Shown here: piece by piece, positions 51,283 through 56,739 of the stretch
How the letters are laid out: every line of letters begins with the position of its first letter
Position numbering within the stretch: position 1 is the first letter of the stretch
Source of the DNA: a bacterium
GTDB taxonomy: Bacteria > Bacillota > Bacilli > Lactobacillales > Streptococcaceae
Length of the DNA stretch: 64,000 nt
Direction of reading: 5' to 3'
Assembly: GCA_905221375.1 (NCBI GenBank)
Contig: CAJNCY010000009.1
Span: 1-64,000 of the forward strand
Made by a program: the position numbers and the translations under genes
The notes under the pieces: generated by a model
Database searches by the model: none
What the model was told of the DNA's origin: nothing
The model's input: only the letters and a program-made list of their open reading frames with translations

Positions 51283-52282
51283 ATATATTTTAGCATTTGA
51301 GACATCCTGTGATGAGACCAGTGTCGCCGTACTGAAAAACGACGATGAACTCTTGTCCAATGTCATTGCTAGTCAAATTGAGAGCCATAAACGTTTCGGT
51401 GGCGTAGTGCCGGAAGTAGCTAGTCGTCACCATGTCGAGGTCATTACAGCCTGTATCGAGGAGGCGCTAGCAGAAGCAGGGATTACTGAAAACTATGTGA
51501 CAGCTGTTGCGGTTACCTATGGACCAGGCTTGGTTGGAGCGCTGTTAGTTGGTTTGTCAGCTGCCAAGGCCTTTGCTTGGGCTCATGGACTTCCGCTGAT
51601 TCCTGTTAACCACATGGCTGGCCACCTCATGGCAGCTCAGAGCGTAGAGCCTTTGGAGTTTCCCTTGCTAGCCCTCTTGGTCAGCGGTGGGCACACAGAG
51701 CTGGTCTATGTTTCTGAGGCAGGAGATTACAAGATTGTTGGAGAAACGCGAGATGATGCGGTTGGTGAGGCCTATGATAAGGTTGGCCGTGTCATGGGCT
51801 TGACCTATCCAGCAGGTCGTGAAATTGACGAGCTGGCTCATCAGGGGCAGGATATTTATGATTTCCCACGTGCCATGATTAAGGAGGATAATCTGGAGTT
51901 TTCATTCTCAGGTTTGAAATCTGCCTTTATTAATCTTCACCACAATGCCGAGCAAAAGGGAGAGAGCTTGTCAACAGAGGATTTGTGTGCTTCCTTCCAA
52001 GCAGCTGTACTGGATATTCTCATGGCAAAAACCAAGAAGGCTTTGGAGAAATATCCTGTTAAAACTCTAGTTGTGGCAGGTGGCGTGGCAGCCAATAAAG
52101 GCCTCAGAGAACGCCTAGCAGCCGAAATCACAGATGTCAAGGTCACCATCCCACCTCTGCGTCTTTGCGGAGATAATGCAGGTATGATTGCCTATGCCAG
52201 CGTCAGCGAGTGGAACAAAGAAAACTTTGCAAGCTTGGATCTCAATGCCAAACCAAGTCTCGCTTTTGATACACTGGAATAA
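51272..52282 (+). CDS. tsaD: tRNA threonylcarbamoyl transferase TsaD
   Basis: A 336-residue protein (former Gcp). The metal-binding motif is [10 protein letters not shown], the nucleotide region [16 protein letters not shown], and ATP-binding [17 protein letters not shown]. It completes t6A37 synthesis with TsaB, TsaC and TsaE. It overlaps rimI by 11 bases. The last 18 codons ([15 protein letters not shown] at the end) recur in diverged form 4.4 kb downstream, marking an island between. Confidence 0.96.
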
Positions 52283-52385: not shown

Positions 52386-53249
52386 ATGATTGAGAGAATG
52401 GAATTGGGAGAATTTTACAAGGAATTGCGCTTGGCGAGAAAGCTCAAGCAGTCAGATGTGTCTTGTGCTGGACTAACAGCTTCTCAGCTATCCAAGTTTG
52501 AACTAGGACAGTCTATGCTATCTGCGGACAAGCTAATCCTAGCTATTCAAGGAATCAATATGAATTTTGATGAGTTTGGTCACAAGCTCAATAATTATCA
52601 AGAATCCCTACATATGCAGATTGGTAGAAAGGTTGTGGATCGCTTTGCCCATCAAGATATTGCTGGCTTAGAGCAACTGTTGGAGGAAGTCGAGCAAGAA
52701 CAGATGGCGCAGACCTATCGTCGTTTGAATGCTATTGTGATTAAAAATGCACTCCATTCCTTAGATAAAAGCTACCCGCTAACAGAGGAGGATAGCGAGT
52801 TTTTGACTACCTACCTCTATGCTATTGAGTCTTGGACCTGGTTTGAACTCTATCTTTTTTGCAATACCATGCCCTTCCTAAGCAATCAAGATCTGATTTT
52901 TTTATCAACCTCTTTGCTTGAAAAATCCAAAGAATTTAAAGAGTTAGTACACAATCGATTGTATATGAAGCAAGGACTATTAAATATCTTATCAGAGCTC
53001 ATGGAGCGCAAGCTTTTCTCCTATATCCCAATCTTTGAAGCAGAGCTGGAGAGCATGTTGCGTCCGTACGATGTTTTTGAGAAACTATCGTGGCAATTTT
53101 TAAAGAAAATGAGTATATTTCTTCAAACCAAAGGAAGTAATCAAAAAGAGATTGAACACTTTATCCAATCTCTGCAAGTATTAGAAAATTCACAATTAAC
53201 AGCCCTCTTCGAATTGCGTTTTCAGCAATACAAAGAACTTATCGATTGA
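52386..53249 (+). CDS. rgg144: Rgg144-type pheromone-responsive regulator
   Basis: A 287-residue Rgg/MutR protein. Residues 8-60 are the helix-turn-helix (FYKELRLARKLKQSDVSCAG, then TASQLSKFELGQSMLS); the remainder is the all-helical peptide-binding repeat domain, including WTWFELYLFCNTMPFLS. It corresponds to pneumococcal Rgg144 by sequence, place behind tsaD, and the convergent SHP144-like gene overlapping its 3' end. Imported SHP should bind the C-domain and switch it to activate the divergent shp and modified-peptide promoters. AGGAGGT precedes the ATG. Confidence 0.9.
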   Translation: MIERMELGEFYKELRLARKLKQSDVSCAGLTASQLSKFELGQSMLSADKLILAIQGINMNFDEFGHKLNNYQESLHMQIGRKVVDRFAHQDIAGLEQLLEEVEQEQMAQTYRRLNAIVIKNALHSLDKSYPLTEEDSEFLTTYLYAIESWTWFELYLFCNTMPFLSNQDLIFLSTSLLEKSKEFKELVHNRLYMKQGLLNILSELMERKLFSYIPIFEAELESMLRPYDVFEKLSWQFLKKMSIFLQTKGSNQKEIEHFIQSLQVLENSQLTALFELRFQQYKELID

Positions 53250-53322
53250 TTAGAAACGGGAAGACGATAACCCACTCCGAAATAAGCAGGAGTATCAGTT
53301 GGATTTTTCTTTTCTTCATCAT
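53239..53322 (-). CDS. shp144: Short hydrophobic pheromone precursor (SHP144-like)
   Basis: A 27-residue peptide on the minus strand, convergent with rgg and overlapping its last 11 bases. It starts MMKKRKIQLILLLI (basic then hydrophobic, the SHP leader pattern) and ends EWVIVFPFLINR. The C-terminal part is close to the pneumococcal SHP144 pheromone region as I recall it (EWVIVIPFLTNL). AAGGAGGG lies upstream of tandem ATG codons. It would be exported, trimmed, and re-imported by the Ami oligopeptide permease to bind Rgg144. An extended -10 (TGGTATAAT) stands 30 bases upstream. Confidence 0.9.
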   Translation of the reverse strand: MMKKRKIQLILLLISEWVIVFPFLINR

Positions 53323-53350
53323 TATATCCCTCCTTGTCAGTAATAACTTT

Positions 53351-53359
53351 ATTATACCA
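53351..53359 (-). promoter_or_regulatory. shp promoter (extended -10)
   Basis: TGGTATAAT on the minus strand, with no sigma-A -35; one arm of the inverted repeat lies 23 bases upstream. Confidence 0.75.
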
Positions 53360-53379
53360 GTGAAATAATCAAATCCACT

Positions 53380-53431
53380 AAAATCGCAAATCAGAAATTT
53401 CTATAAGAAAAAATATCAAATATGCGATTTT
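53380..53431. promoter_or_regulatory. Candidate Rgg144 operator (inverted repeat between divergent promoters)
   Basis: AAAATCGCA (53380-53388) and TGCGATTTT (53423-53431) are perfect inverted arms. Each arm's outer edge is exactly 23 bases from the -10 of one of the two divergent promoters, at the -35 position. A direct repeat CAAATATGCGATTTTC / CAAATACGCCAATTTTC overlaps the right arm. Confidence 0.7.
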
Positions 53432-53451
53432 CTCAAATACGCCAATTTTCG

Positions 53452-53460
53452 TGTTATAGT
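53452..53460 (+). promoter_or_regulatory. Promoter of the modified-peptide operon
   Basis: Extended -10 TGTTATAGT without a consensus -35, 76 bases before the peptide gene; likely Rgg-dependent. Confidence 0.7.
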
Positions 53461-53535
53461 GTTCTTGTAAAGTACTTGAAGCAAATCCTAGGTCGCATAA
53501 GTGGTTTACAAAGAAAAATAATTGGAGGAGAAACA

Positions 53536-53586
53536 ATGTCTGCTGTACCATATTCATTTCAAGGGCATCGTTTAGGTGGCCGTTAG
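53536..53586 (+). CDS. 16-residue precursor peptide of a MccB-type system
   Basis: MSAVPYSFQGHRLGGR, with a strong ribosome site (TTGGAGGAG) six bases before the ATG and an Rgg-type promoter upstream. It is followed on the same strand by an E1-like MccB homologue and an MFS exporter, the layout of mccA-mccB-mccC. Known MccA peptides end in Asn, which MccB couples to AMP; this one ends in Arg, preceded by Gly-Gly. It has no leader with double-glycine consensus and no signal peptide. It may be modified at its C-terminus directly, or trimmed first to expose Gly-Gly, which would look like a ubiquitin-like tail. Chemistry is inference. Confidence 0.75.
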   Translation: MSAVPYSFQGHRLGGR

Positions 53587-53968
53587 TTAAATAATAGCAA
53601 TCTATAGGATAGAAAAGATAAACTTTGGATTAGATATAGTGGATTGAAATCAAGATAAACATATACGACAAAAATTCTAATTAATATATATTTTGCTGCA
53701 AATGCAACGGATATTATACAAAAAATCTTAAATCTTAATAATTGTGAAGAATGATGATATTCATAATGTTTAAAAGTTAATGTCTGCATGCTATTAAGAT
53801 TTTAACTGAATTTTAGAAGTCGATAAGTTTTTTGTATTTTAATTTATTATATGGATAGAAATTATAAATGAGTTGTATTCGTATTTATAATTTTGGAGTT
53901 TAGGAAAATATTTTCCAAACTCCTATTTGTTGTTTATCTTTTAATAGTTTTTGATTAGGAGGATCTAA
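53587..53968 (+). other. AT-rich spacer between peptide and E1 genes
   Basis: No open frame with a ribosome site was found on either strand. It includes a fragment ATAGTGGATTGAAAT that resembles repeats seen in mitis-group genomes, and one strong hairpin near its end (separate entry). In the E. coli microcin C operon a terminator also separates the peptide gene from mccB. Confidence 0.6.
53895..53928 (+). terminator. Attenuator-like hairpin upstream of the E1 gene
   Basis: GGAGTTT-A-GGAAAAT pairs with ATTTTCC-AAACTCC (14 bp, one bulge), followed by a T-rich but broken run. It could end most transcripts after the peptide gene and let some reach the enzyme gene. Confidence 0.6.
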
Positions 53969-54931
53969 ATGAGAATAAAGAGAACTCTTCAACCGTATAT
54001 ATTTAAAGATAAAATAAAATTTGGTTTTGGTAATGTTTCTCTTGTAAGGGAGATTGATTTTAATGAAGAGAACATCAATTTAATAAAAAAATTAGATAAT
54101 GACATTGATATAAAATTGTTGTCTAATGGAGAAAAACAAGTTGTTGAGTCGATGATATCTATGGGATTAGTGACTAGTAATCAATATGATAATTCCAAAT
54201 ATTCCCGAAATATTAATTTCTTTGAGTGGGTTGATTTGTCAGAAAATTTAGACCCTAGTAAGTATCAGGATAGATTATTAAATTCAACAGTTTTAATTGT
54301 TGGTGTAGGGGGTATTGGATCAACAACAGTCGAAATTTTAGCTCGTCTAGGTATAGGTAATTTCATATTAGTAGATTTTGACATTGTGGAAGAGTCAAAT
54401 CTTACTAGACAAACATCCTTTAAGAAATCTGATATTGGTAAGCTAAAAATAGACATAATAAAACAGCATATTCAAGAGATTTCTGATTCAAATGTGACAA
54501 CTATTTATAGGAAGTTAGAGTGTCAGAATGACTTAGAAACTATTTTTAAAGATTATAATTTTGACATTGCTTTATGCTGTGCAGATACTCCTAGAATAGA
54601 GATAGACTACTGGTTTGATGATTTAGCTCATAAATATACGAGACCTATTATTGTTGGCTCATATGCATCTACGGTAATAAACTACCTACATATTATTCCG
54701 GGCAAAACTATTTCATTGAGGGAGTTTTATAGGGACTTTATGATAACAGATGATCATGTTTTGGATAGTAGAATACCGTATAGTGTTATTTCTCCAATAT
54801 CATATATGGCTGCATCAATCATATCTTATAAAGTATTAGATACTTTAACAGGATTATTGAATTTAACGGATTATATTCAAATCGATTGCATGAATTTTGA
54901 GGTTTATAAGCATGATATTAAGAAAATTTAG
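53969..54931 (+). CDS. MccB-like E1/ThiF adenylyltransferase
   Basis: A 320-residue protein. Residues 1-100 correspond to the MccB peptide-clamp region, including the linker YSRN; residues 105-320 are the ThiF/E1 adenylation fold: VGVGGIGS (112-118), LVDFDIVEESNLTRQ with Asp and the Arg finger (134-148), GKLK (157-160), CADTP (204-208) and IIPGKT (242-247). MccB has a Cys-x-x-Cys just after PGKT and another near its end for zinc; both are absent here. No E1 catalytic Cys is evident, as in MccB, which transfers AMP without a thioester. It likely adenylates the short peptide encoded upstream. AGGAGG precedes the ATG. AT-rich codon use differs from the core neighbours and suggests transfer. Confidence 0.87.
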   Translation: MRIKRTLQPYIFKDKIKFGFGNVSLVREIDFNEENINLIKKLDNDIDIKLLSNGEKQVVESMISMGLVTSNQYDNSKYSRNINFFEWVDLSENLDPSKYQDRLLNSTVLIVGVGGIGSTTVEILARLGIGNFILVDFDIVEESNLTRQTSFKKSDIGKLKIDIIKQHIQEISDSNVTTIYRKLECQNDLETIFKDYNFDIALCCADTPRIEIDYWFDDLAHKYTRPIIVGSYASTVINYLHIIPGKTISLREFYRDFMITDDHVLDSRIPYSVISPISYMAASIISYKVLDTLTGLLNLTDYIQIDCMNFEVYKHDIKKI

Positions 54932-56135
54932 CCAAAATTTTATAAATTTAATATTAGGTAGATCGTCTAGGAATATTGCAGATAGTTTTTACTTTATTGC
55001 TTTATCGATAGGGTTAGTAAGTGTATATCATATTGAGGCAGGACAGTTATCTCTATTTACTCTAATTGGTTTTATCCCAAATTTGCTTGCTGTTTTTTAT
55101 GGAAGTTTTATAAATAAAATTCAGAGAGATAAAATTTGGCTAGTGATTTTCCAGATTCTCCAGTTTATTATAATTGTGATTACAATTCTGTGTTTAAGGT
55201 ATCATTTTCGTGTTGTGTATATCTATGTATTGAATTTTTTGTTCGCATTATCAACTAATTTATTAAATACACTGCAGATGAAAATTGTTCCAGAAACTTT
55301 AAATAATGATGACATGCTAATAAAGAAATCGATAGATGTTCAATACTTGGCATCAAATGTGTTAGATATTATTAGTAATTTAACTGCATCTCTACTATTA
55401 GGGCTTCTATCTTATTTTGTTGTTTTTAATTTAAGTATTCCGTTTTTTGTGGCTGCTATTTATTTTATGATTAAAATCAGATTGCCCGGTTCCAAAAACA
55501 ATACTAAAAGTGTTCGACCTGAAAAGGTAGATTTGGAAAGTAATTCTTCTTTCAAATTTTTGGGAACTGTTTCTGCTTTTCGAGAATCAAAATTTGCCTC
55601 TTTTATAGTAGTTACAGAGTCAATTTTAAGTGGGGGTACAGATCTACTTTTAACTTTAATGCCACTGTATCTTTTATCAGAAGGCATACCTATTCAATAT
55701 TTGGGATTGGTACTAGGAGCTCAAAGATTTGCCGATTTGATAGGAGCAATTTTGGCTCCTAGAGTGGGAATTCCGTATAAAATGTTTTTCTTTATTGATT
55801 ATACTGTATCTGGATTAGCACTCATGCTAGTATTTATTACTCCATTTCCGTTAATAAAGTTGTTGTTATTTTTTTTAGCATTTATTTTAATAGGTATATC
55901 AGGAAATATGTTTGAAAAAATGATTTACTCAGAGTATAGATACGACACTATGGGATTGATATATTCGACTAATTCAAGTTTATATGCTTTATTTGCCATT
56001 CTATTTTTGATTATTCCTCAATTTTATACAGATATAAAAATTTTGGGTATTTTAATAAATGGATTTACACTATCTATAGGAATTTATTTATTAGTTATTT
56101 GTAATTTTTTCAAAAAGAATGATACTAATTGTTAA
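54912..56135 (+). CDS. MFS exporter of the MccB-like operon (MccC position)
   Basis: A 407-residue major facilitator protein with about twelve membrane segments (SFYFIALSIGLVSVYHI starts the first group); a basic loop (PGSKNNTKSVRPEKVD) joins the halves. MccC exporters of microcin C pathways are MFS proteins in this place. It overlaps the E1 gene by 20 bases. The ATG at 54912 is chosen because GAGG lies nine bases before it; a TTG five codons earlier is possible. It should export the modified peptide and may itself give immunity, since no MccE- or MccF-like gene is present. Confidence 0.85.
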   Translation: MILRKFSQNFINLILGRSSRNIADSFYFIALSIGLVSVYHIEAGQLSLFTLIGFIPNLLAVFYGSFINKIQRDKIWLVIFQILQFIIIVITILCLRYHFRVVYIYVLNFLFALSTNLLNTLQMKIVPETLNNDDMLIKKSIDVQYLASNVLDIISNLTASLLLGLLSYFVVFNLSIPFFVAAIYFMIKIRLPGSKNNTKSVRPEKVDLESNSSFKFLGTVSAFRESKFASFIVVTESILSGGTDLLLTLMPLYLLSEGIPIQYLGLVLGAQRFADLIGAILAPRVGIPYKMFFFIDYTVSGLALMLVFITPFPLIKLLLFFLAFILIGISGNMFEKMIYSEYRYDTMGLIYSTNSSLYALFAILFLIIPQFYTDIKILGILINGFTLSIGIYLLVICNFFKKNDTNC

Positions 56136-56336: not shown

Positions 56337-56621
56337 ATGGGAAAGCAAAGCCAGTTGCAAATGTTGATTCATTCTCTGTACAATAATAAAGAAATTAGCT
56401 TGACGGAAGAATTTAGGAAGCAATTGCTGGAAACAGCAAAACAGTTTTCTAGTACTAGCGAAGATTTGCTAGCTGCACGTCTTTCTTTTGCCGTCTCTAA
56501 AGAATTATTGGACTTTAAAGGTGAACCGCCGACAGAGTTGTTGGATTTAGCAAAATTTGTCCAAAAGAAAGAAGCTAAATATAAGCAGGGAATAGTGTGG
56601 TCTGGTATTTTTAAAATATGA
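56337..56621 (+). CDS. Bacteriocin immunity protein (EntA/PncM-like)
   Basis: A 94-residue cytoplasmic helical protein (MLIHSLYNNKEISLTEEFRK, LLAARLSFAVSKELLDF). Length and helix pattern match the enterocin A immunity family, which protects against pediocin-like or Blp bacteriocins by acting at the membrane on the receptor side. ATGAGGTAA provides the ribosome site. No complete bacteriocin gene is next to it, so it may be an orphan immunity gene or may once have served the broken gene upstream. Confidence 0.75.
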   Translation: MGKQSQLQMLIHSLYNNKEISLTEEFRKQLLETAKQFSSTSEDLLAARLSFAVSKELLDFKGEPPTELLDLAKFVQKKEAKYKQGIVWSGIFKI

Positions 56622-56684: not shown

Positions 56685-56739
56685 GCGAGGCTTGGACCTC
56701 AATGCCAAACCTAGCCTCGCTTTTGATAACATGGAATAA
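56685..56739 (+). pseudogene. Second, diverged copy of the tsaD 3' end
   Basis: In frame it reads [15 protein letters not shown] and a stop, against [15 protein letters not shown] in tsaD. Most codons match, with several synonymous changes, and a terminator follows in the same place. It marks the right border of the island inserted behind tsaD. Confidence 0.85.

What the first reader, a model, noticed from the sequence alone, without database searches (positions are those of the whole stretch)
52386..56135. Pheromone-controlled MccB-type modified-peptide system (Rgg144/SHP144, 16-residue peptide, E1 enzyme, MFS exporter)
Seen: rgg, a convergent SHP gene, a divergent promoter region with a symmetric inverted repeat, then a 16-codon gene with a strong ribosome site, a MccB homologue with clamp and ThiF regions, and an MFS gene. 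Known: mccA-mccB-mccC make microcin C, a peptidyl-AMP that poisons aspartyl-tRNA synthetase; Rgg/SHP circuits switch on secreted peptides in streptococci. Inferred: this is a quorum-sensing-controlled nucleotide-peptide or otherwise modified peptide. In pneumococcus Rgg144 is known for controlling a different (vp1) operon, so the cargo of this circuit has been exchanged.
Basis: partly seen in the sequence, partly recalled or inferred. Interest (0 to 1): 0.9.

Follow-up and report, generated by a model that had tools for sequence, protein, structure and literature searches.

The report
Pheromone-controlled tiny arginine-tipped modified peptide
A streptococcal gene set beside a cell-to-cell pheromone switch appears to make a 16-residue peptide that an enzyme related to the microcin C enzyme would activate at its tip, and a similar tiny gene ending in an arginine pattern sits beside this enzyme in several other bacterial groups.

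Summary

I examined 17 genomes with this E1 subfamily. Fifteen have the tiny gene (Streptococcus, Aerococcus, Lactobacillaceae, Alloscardovia, Lysinibacillus); 14 of the 15 peptides end in R-x-G-x-R. The two genomes without it have a damaged E1. A hairpin lies between the two genes in 11 of 11 loci folded, as in the mcc operon.

I read it as a distinct ThiF-type RiPP: the E1 adenylates the C-terminal Arg carboxylate, most likely for dehydrative ring closure. A true microcin C is less likely: no terminal Asn, no CxxC motifs.

The 'exchanged cargo' idea is supported. Among 64 rgg144-type loci the slot holds VP1/CAAX (49), ThiF (4), a LanKC-like synthetase (4) or none of these (7); a block of about 3.3 kb, pheromone gene included, was recently shared between genomes.

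The kind (ThiF-RiPPs, some near rgg genes) is known. The chemistry, function and SHP control of this member are untested, and the key 2024 survey was not available to me.

The parts
52386..53249 (+). rgg, probable ortholog of pneumococcal rgg144 (inferred from slot, SHP and VP1 neighbours at sister loci)
   Evidence: PF21259 and TIGR01716; proteins at least 89% identical in 64 of 284 Streptococcus genomes, one of them partial
53239..53322 (-). shp, convergent pheromone gene (predicted mature end EWVIVFPFLINR)
   Evidence: sequence; same or variant SHPs at many sister loci, none found at others; D39 SHP144 is printed as EWVIVIPFLTNL in PMC13361665
53323..53520 (.). divergent regulatory region shared with VP1 and LanKC cargo loci
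   Evidence: alignments of 17 loci and 4 loci
53380..53431 (.). inverted repeat AAAATCGCAAAT..ATATGCGATTTT, candidate Rgg operator (function inferred)
   Evidence: 21-nt arms, 81% complementary; kept in all cargo types, with changed left-arm bases in the four loci that lack shp
53524..53528 (+). Shine-Dalgarno GGAGG of the tiny gene
   Evidence: sequence
53536..53586 (+). 16-codon precursor gene MSAVPYSFQGHRLGGR, C-terminal RxGxR
   Evidence: such a gene upstream of the E1 in 15 of 17 genomes
53895..53923 (+). hairpin between precursor and E1 genes (attenuator/terminator-like, inferred)
   Evidence: a hairpin also in the 10 other loci folded and in the mcc control
53969..54931 (+). ThiF/E1-like peptide adenylyltransferase
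54912..56135 (+). MFS-type exporter, overlaps the E1 end by 20 nt
   Evidence: homologous gene after the E1 in 15 of 17 genomes counting the window, in L005 only its first 68 residues; exceptions L010 (ABC transporter genes instead) and L036 (no match)

Best explanation
It is a minimal ThiF-type RiPP operon in the Rgg144/SHP144 cargo slot. Imported SHP would activate Rgg at the shared divergent promoter region, transcribing shp leftward and the operon rightward (inferred from Rgg144/VP1). The first gene makes a 16-residue precursor; the hairpin after it would lower E1 and MFS expression relative to the peptide (inferred from mcc). The N-terminal domain of the E1 would bind the precursor, and its catalytic domain would adenylate the C-terminal Arg carboxylate (inferred from the fold, the conserved Arg147, Lys160 and Asp206, and a motif that ends at the stop codon). 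The activated carboxylate is most likely attacked within the peptide with loss of water: by the guanidine of Arg(-5), by a backbone amide, or by the terminal Arg's own side chain. The MFS protein would export the product, for competition or signalling.
Against: No expression, mass or activity data. No protease or dedicated immunity gene was seen inside the cassette. The E1 was modelled alone, without peptide or ATP. L010 departs from the motif and has ABC transporter genes in place of the MFS. SHP control is inferred from position only; at many sister rgg loci no shp was found by my scan. Between window and L004 the peptide's dN/dS is 0.57, so its N-terminal part is loosely held. The regulators of this peptide elsewhere differ or are not seen.
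Confidence: 0.72

Rival explanations
1. A true microcin C relative: the E1 joins a nucleotide to the peptide end, giving a Trojan-horse inhibitor (by analogy perhaps of arginyl-tRNA synthetase).
For: MccB is the closest sequence and structure in the PDB. Tiny gene, hairpin, E1 and overlapping MFS gene is also the layout of the mcc plasmid record L140.
Against: No terminal Asn in any of 11 distinct peptides; no CxxC in 7 family E1s; no mccD/E/F-like neighbours in the window; the E1 rows with a known peptide fall in a clade (96/95) apart from the heptapeptide MccB group; the MFS has no significant BLASTP similarity to that of L140 (E 1.3).
Confidence: 0.13
2. The tiny ORF is a regulatory leader (attenuator or arrest peptide) for the E1-MFS genes, not a substrate.
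For: Short ORF followed by a hairpin before the enzyme gene.
Against: Residues -5, -3 and -1 are fixed in 10 of 11 peptides while codons, length (10-23) and the N-terminal part vary; absence of the ORF goes with E1 damage in 2 of 2 cases; an E1 of MccB fold is expected to need a peptide substrate.
Confidence: 0.07
3. The E1 serves a protein substrate or sulfur carrier (MoeB/ThiF or ubiquitin-like conjugation), and the peptide is incidental.
For: ThiF domain; Gly-Gly near the end of several peptides recalls ubiquitin-like tails.
Against: The best structural hits are the peptide-modifying MccB and PaaA, which align over the whole model, ahead of MoeB and ThiF, which align from about residue 72 on; none of the 25 NCBIfam families listed reaches its cutoff; no carrier-protein gene was recognised among the neighbours scanned.
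Confidence: 0.04
4. Same chemistry, but the product is a signal (as VP1 and SHP are) and not an antimicrobial. This is compatible with the best explanation.
For: Sits in a slot otherwise often used by VP1, described as a signalling peptide (PMC7595303, passages); no immunity gene seen inside the cassette.
Against: A LanKC-like cargo in the same slot makes a bacteriocin-like role equally possible.
Confidence: 0.35

Closest known systems
Microcin C operon (mccA-mccB-mccC...)
   Same: Tiny gene, intervening hairpin, E1 of the same fold, overlapping MFS gene
   Different: 7 residues ending in Asn against 10-23 ending in Arg; no CxxC motifs; no mccD/E/F-like neighbours in the window; separate E1 clade
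ThiF RiPPs of streptococci and enterococci: IndF (indolylamide), EnfB (macrocyclic imide), GrcB (thiolactone)
   Same: N-terminal peptide-binding (RRE) domain plus ThiF domain acting on a precursor peptide (PMC12150305, PMC12250964); ThiF or radical-SAM genes near 11 of 21 S. thermophilus rgg clusters (PMC12445099, passages)
   Different: Precursor shorter (EnfA has 21 residues, GrcA 39), no Trp-, Cys- or Ile-ended motif, no peptidase seen, MFS exporter. The IndF, EnfB and GrcB sequences themselves were not compared here
Pantocin A enzyme PaaA
   Different: Pantocin chemistry uses internal Glu residues (recalled, from no call); no Glu is conserved in these peptides
Rgg144/SHP144-VP1 locus of S. 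pneumoniae
   Same: Regulator, pheromone gene, inverted repeat and slot
   Different: Cargo is a ThiF peptide cassette plus MFS, not double-glycine VP1 plus CAAX protease

Membership tests
ThiF-type (adenylyltransferase) RiPP cluster | ThiF/E1 enzyme with an N-terminal peptide-binding (RRE-type) domain | tested here: met
ThiF-type (adenylyltransferase) RiPP cluster | Conserved precursor peptide gene beside the enzyme | tested here: met
   15 of 17 genomes
ThiF-type (adenylyltransferase) RiPP cluster | ATP-dependent modification of the precursor | not testable with these tools
   needs an enzyme assay
Microcin C-like peptide-nucleotide | Precursor with C-terminal Asn | tested here: not met
   0 of 11 distinct peptides; the ORF finder gave MRTGNAN before the E1 of L140
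Microcin C-like peptide-nucleotide | MccB fold | tested here: met
Microcin C-like peptide-nucleotide | CxxC motifs as in E. coli MccB | tested here: not met
   none in the 7 family E1s examined, two in MccB; that these bind zinc is recalled
Microcin C-like peptide-nucleotide | Accessory/immunity genes mccD, mccE, mccF in the cluster | tested here: not met
   Window only: genes from rimI to the M20 peptidase are RimI-type GNAT, TsaD, Rgg, E1, MFS-type, EntA_Immun-like, AzlC, AzlD, SBP_bac_3, NlpA lipoprotein, M20 (names TsaD and RimI fit the conserved tsaB-rimI-tsaD order, recalled). L140 has methyltransferase, GNAT and S66 peptidase genes. Minimal three-gene mcc clusters are reported (PMC12250964), so this feature is not decisive
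Rgg/SHP (Rgg144-type) quorum-sensing locus | Rgg regulator with adjacent shp and shared regulatory region | tested here: met
Rgg/SHP (Rgg144-type) quorum-sensing locus | Operon induced by the cognate SHP | not testable with these tools
   needs expression data

The most novel reading that the evidence does not exclude
The subfamily carries out a new post-translational chemistry: E1-driven closure of the C-terminal Arg carboxylate by the conserved Arg(-5) guanidine (a macrocyclic acyl-guanidine) or by its own side chain, the only side chains shared by the precursors. The tiny gene would then be among the shortest RiPP precursors (10 codons in Alloscardovia and Lysinibacillus), and the streptococcal Rgg144 slot a plug-in site that trades peptide cargoes of different chemistry together with their pheromone.
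Probability: 0.35. Interest if true: 0.78.

Novelty: new variant of a known kind. Interest (0 to 1): 0.62.

Why it matters
It gives a compact, testable enzyme-substrate pair (320-residue E1, 16-residue synthetic peptide) whose conserved end leaves arginine side chains and backbone amides as the shared candidates for the reacting group. It also shows that a pheromone switch studied in pneumococcus for VP1 sits in front of a slot where cargoes of different chemistry are found in different streptococci, which bears on whether Rgg144 phenotypes can be carried over from strain to strain.

Tried and rejected
Phages and plasmids: no phage record with a relative at 1e-10; 50 plasmid records, all under 60% identity, 26-35% in the 20 listed. 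The viral-contig scan gave two distant hits. EntA_Immun (56337-56621) was considered as cassette immunity and rejected: it also occurs in slot loci without ThiF (e.g. L088, L089, L101, L123) and identity to sister genomes falls behind the MFS. MFS against the MccC-type MFS of L140: no significant BLASTP similarity, which does not exclude a shared fold. The 54-codon ORF that includes the 16 codons (53422-53586) was rejected as the gene: the frame in front of the 16 codons is not kept in L003, L004, L006 or L009. The promoter scan was no better than shuffles. No search for tRNA-synthetase copies as immunity was made. Literature: searches listed no paper that I recognised as describing this cassette, but I opened only seven papers, six of them in part only, and Wang et al. 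2024 (ACS Omega), which surveys ThiF-RiPPs of lactic acid bacteria, is not held. I therefore cannot say that the group is unpublished.

Tree caveat: 42 rows chosen by me; of the loci offered, L031, L036, L037 and L038 were dropped because the script found no ORF with its motif. Midpoint root, so 'apart from' means a supported split only.
Full report
What is there. Window 52386-56135 holds rgg, a convergent shp overlapping its 3' end, a divergent regulatory region with a 21-nt-arm inverted repeat (81%), a 16-codon gene with GGAGG seven bases upstream, a 382-nt gap with a hairpin, a ThiF/E1 gene and an MFS-type gene overlapping it by 20 nt. TsaD (PF00814) lies before it and AzlC (PF03591) after it.

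The tiny gene is conserved. One genome scan with an alignment of 22 relatives gave 21 loci, of which L001-L011 are close (38-100%). Genome searches found the subfamily in 7 of 284 Streptococcus genomes at E 5e-119 or better (3 more genomes, and a second place in G246, match only at about 1e-42 to 1e-44) and in 5 of 330 Lactobacillaceae genomes at 1e-60. Searches of 395 Lactobacillales (1e-40) and 398 Bacilli genomes (1e-60) gave, beyond Streptococcus genomes already seen, L035 (the Aerococcus of L006), L036 and the more distant L037 and L038. Fifteen have a short ORF with a ribosome site upstream of the E1. Distinct peptides, one genome each unless stated: MSAVPYSFQGHRLGGR (4), MSAVPCSFQGHRLGGR, MTVVAVQTFPGHRVGGR (2), MTAEVVNRPGYRIGGR, MFPTYRVGQR, MLPAFRNGDR, MDFADLNGSNGHRVGGR, MTTRQWRNGGR, MSSRLPAPKHSSLPPVGFRVGSR, MTEVVELPGGWRWGKR, MTLDGDRVGWRKGCGLR. 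Ten of these 11 end in R-x-G-x-R, and those ten have H, Y, F or W before the first Arg; the eleventh (L010) has RVGWR internally and ends in Arg. Codons at the fixed positions differ. Control: of 7,952 ORFs of 8-20 codons in 673,056 strand-nt, 20 ended so; 15 were this gene in 10 loci and 5 were elsewhere, in L012, L019 and L021. An ORF finder of the same kind recovers MccA (MRTGNAN) on an E. coli plasmid.

The exceptions. L036/L137 has an E1 with no tiny gene found and no MFS match; its glycine loop and NLTRQ motif are altered. L005/G009 matches only from residue 85, its open frame is 239 codons, and the sequence in front of that point is the region that in L004 precedes the tiny gene, so the tiny gene and the E1 start are missing together. 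An assembly error in L005 is not excluded.

Layout. In 11 of 11 loci folded, the gap has a local hairpin more stable than most dinucleotide shuffles (0 to 3 of 60 shuffles as stable; z -2.1 to -6.9); the mcc control gives z -2.5, 1 of 60 (the L010 gap started 25 bases early). In mcc a terminator between mccA and mccB lets the peptide RNA exceed the enzyme RNAs (PMC6495379, passages). An equivalent role here is inference. An MFS homolog follows the E1 in 15 of the 17 genomes, counting the window.

The slot. Rgg144-type proteins at 89% identity or more occur in 64 of 284 Streptococcus genomes, one of them partial. I fetched the downstream DNA of all 64 as L069-L132; five are cut by contig ends within about 2.2 kb and L122 at 5.2 kb. 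Cargo by tblastn (tally in 98): VP1 and/or CAAX in 49; ThiF plus MFS in 4 (L070, L071, L072, L091), of which L091 also carries two VP1+CAAX modules behind it; a LanKC-like synthetase in 4 (L069, L073 and L129 in two ORFs, with RamC_N PF25816 in L069; L106 one 838-codon ORF that matches weakly, 26%); none of these in 7 (L088, L089, L099, L100, L101, L103, L123). Three more distant rgg loci (62-72%, L133-L135) were fetched and left out of the count. The inverted repeat is kept across cargo types in 17 loci aligned, but four of them (L088, L101, L079, L123) lack the shp part and have changed left-arm bases, and L079 departs soon after the repeat; in the others the shared stretch runs to about the ribosome site of the first cargo gene.

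Mosaic. Against L001, L002 and L072 the window is 98.8% identical in the 3' half of rgg, 100% in shp, 98.5-100% in the regulatory region and precursor, and 99.5-99.9% in the gap, E1 and MFS; but 91.3% in the 5' half of rgg, 91.7-93.1% in tsaD, 96.0% just behind the MFS, and 93.7-95.2% in the EntA_Immun-like and azlC genes. I read this as recent transfer of one block of about 3.3 kb, pheromone gene included, by homologous recombination (inference; segment borders are mine). L003 is older: 95% in E1 and MFS, 76% in the gap, 87-89% in rgg.

Regulators elsewhere. L004 (S. parasanguinis) has an HTH regulator gene and a 44-codon ORF with a hydrophobic start before the tiny gene. L011 has a divergent Rgg_C-type regulator (E 2.1e-11) and a 28-codon ORF. 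In the ORF lists of L006-L010 I recognised no such regulator by eye (only 0.9 kb is held upstream in L009). Peptide quorum sensing may therefore have been joined to this cargo more than once (inference).

Mechanism. Shown: gene content, conservation, predicted fold, invariant residues, mosaic identity. Inferred: SHP control (from VP1 at the same promoter region; PMC5913232 and PMC7595303), adenylation of the C-terminal Arg, cyclisation, export. The motif ends at the stop codon in 10 of 11 peptides although length varies from 10 to 23, which points to the C-terminal carboxylate. Phe before the first Arg in two peptides argues against that side chain as the nucleophile (contrast the Trp of IndF). 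Arg side chains and backbone amides are left as shared candidates.

Papers. PMC12150305: parts 1 and 2 of 3 of the text. PMC12250964: sections 8 and 17 and passages. PMC13361665, PMC12445099, PMC7595303, PMC5913232, PMC6495379: passages only. All others: search listings.

Verdict. A well-supported member of the ThiF-RiPP kind with a distinct precursor motif and unknown product; not a microcin C by the tests made.

Noticed in passing
L069, L073, L129, L106 (rgg144 slot): LanKC-like synthetase (two ORFs in the first three, one 838-codon ORF in L106) as another cargo behind the same rgg and regulatory region.
   Followed up: partly
window 52233-52282 and 56690-56739: A 50-nt copy (88%) of the 3' end of tsaD lies before azlC, so the rgg-ThiF stretch is flanked by a direct repeat; TsaD-end matches near azlC also in L071, L088, L089 and L099.
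   Followed up: partly
L022 5914-5937 (IMG/VR viral contig): Seven-codon ORF MLGKTRN before a ThiF-like gene: a microcin C-like pair on a contig classed as viral.
   Followed up: no
L014 5611-5634: Seven-codon ORF MNTTPRN before a ThiF-like gene in an Oscillospiraceae MAG, microcin C-like.
   Followed up: no
L034 1323-1373 (G246, same genome as L003): A second, distant ThiF gene with a 16-codon ORF MKITKVIAAASTVEGR upstream.
   Followed up: no
L032 1046-1105 and L033 1158-1217 (reverse-complement coordinates): Nineteen-codon ORFs ending in GSC upstream of another streptococcal ThiF type (MKKVAEVKSFSEKEKMGSC, MKKINEVKVLSENSKTGSC); possibly thiolactone precursors.
   Followed up: no
L036 / L137: E1-family gene 12 nt behind an unrelated long ORF, without tiny gene or MFS and with altered ATP-site motifs; a relic or a protein with a new role.
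   Followed up: partly
window 56337-56621: Enterocin A immunity-like protein (PF08951, E 0.0056, below cutoff), present in this slot with and without the ThiF cargo.
   Followed up: partly
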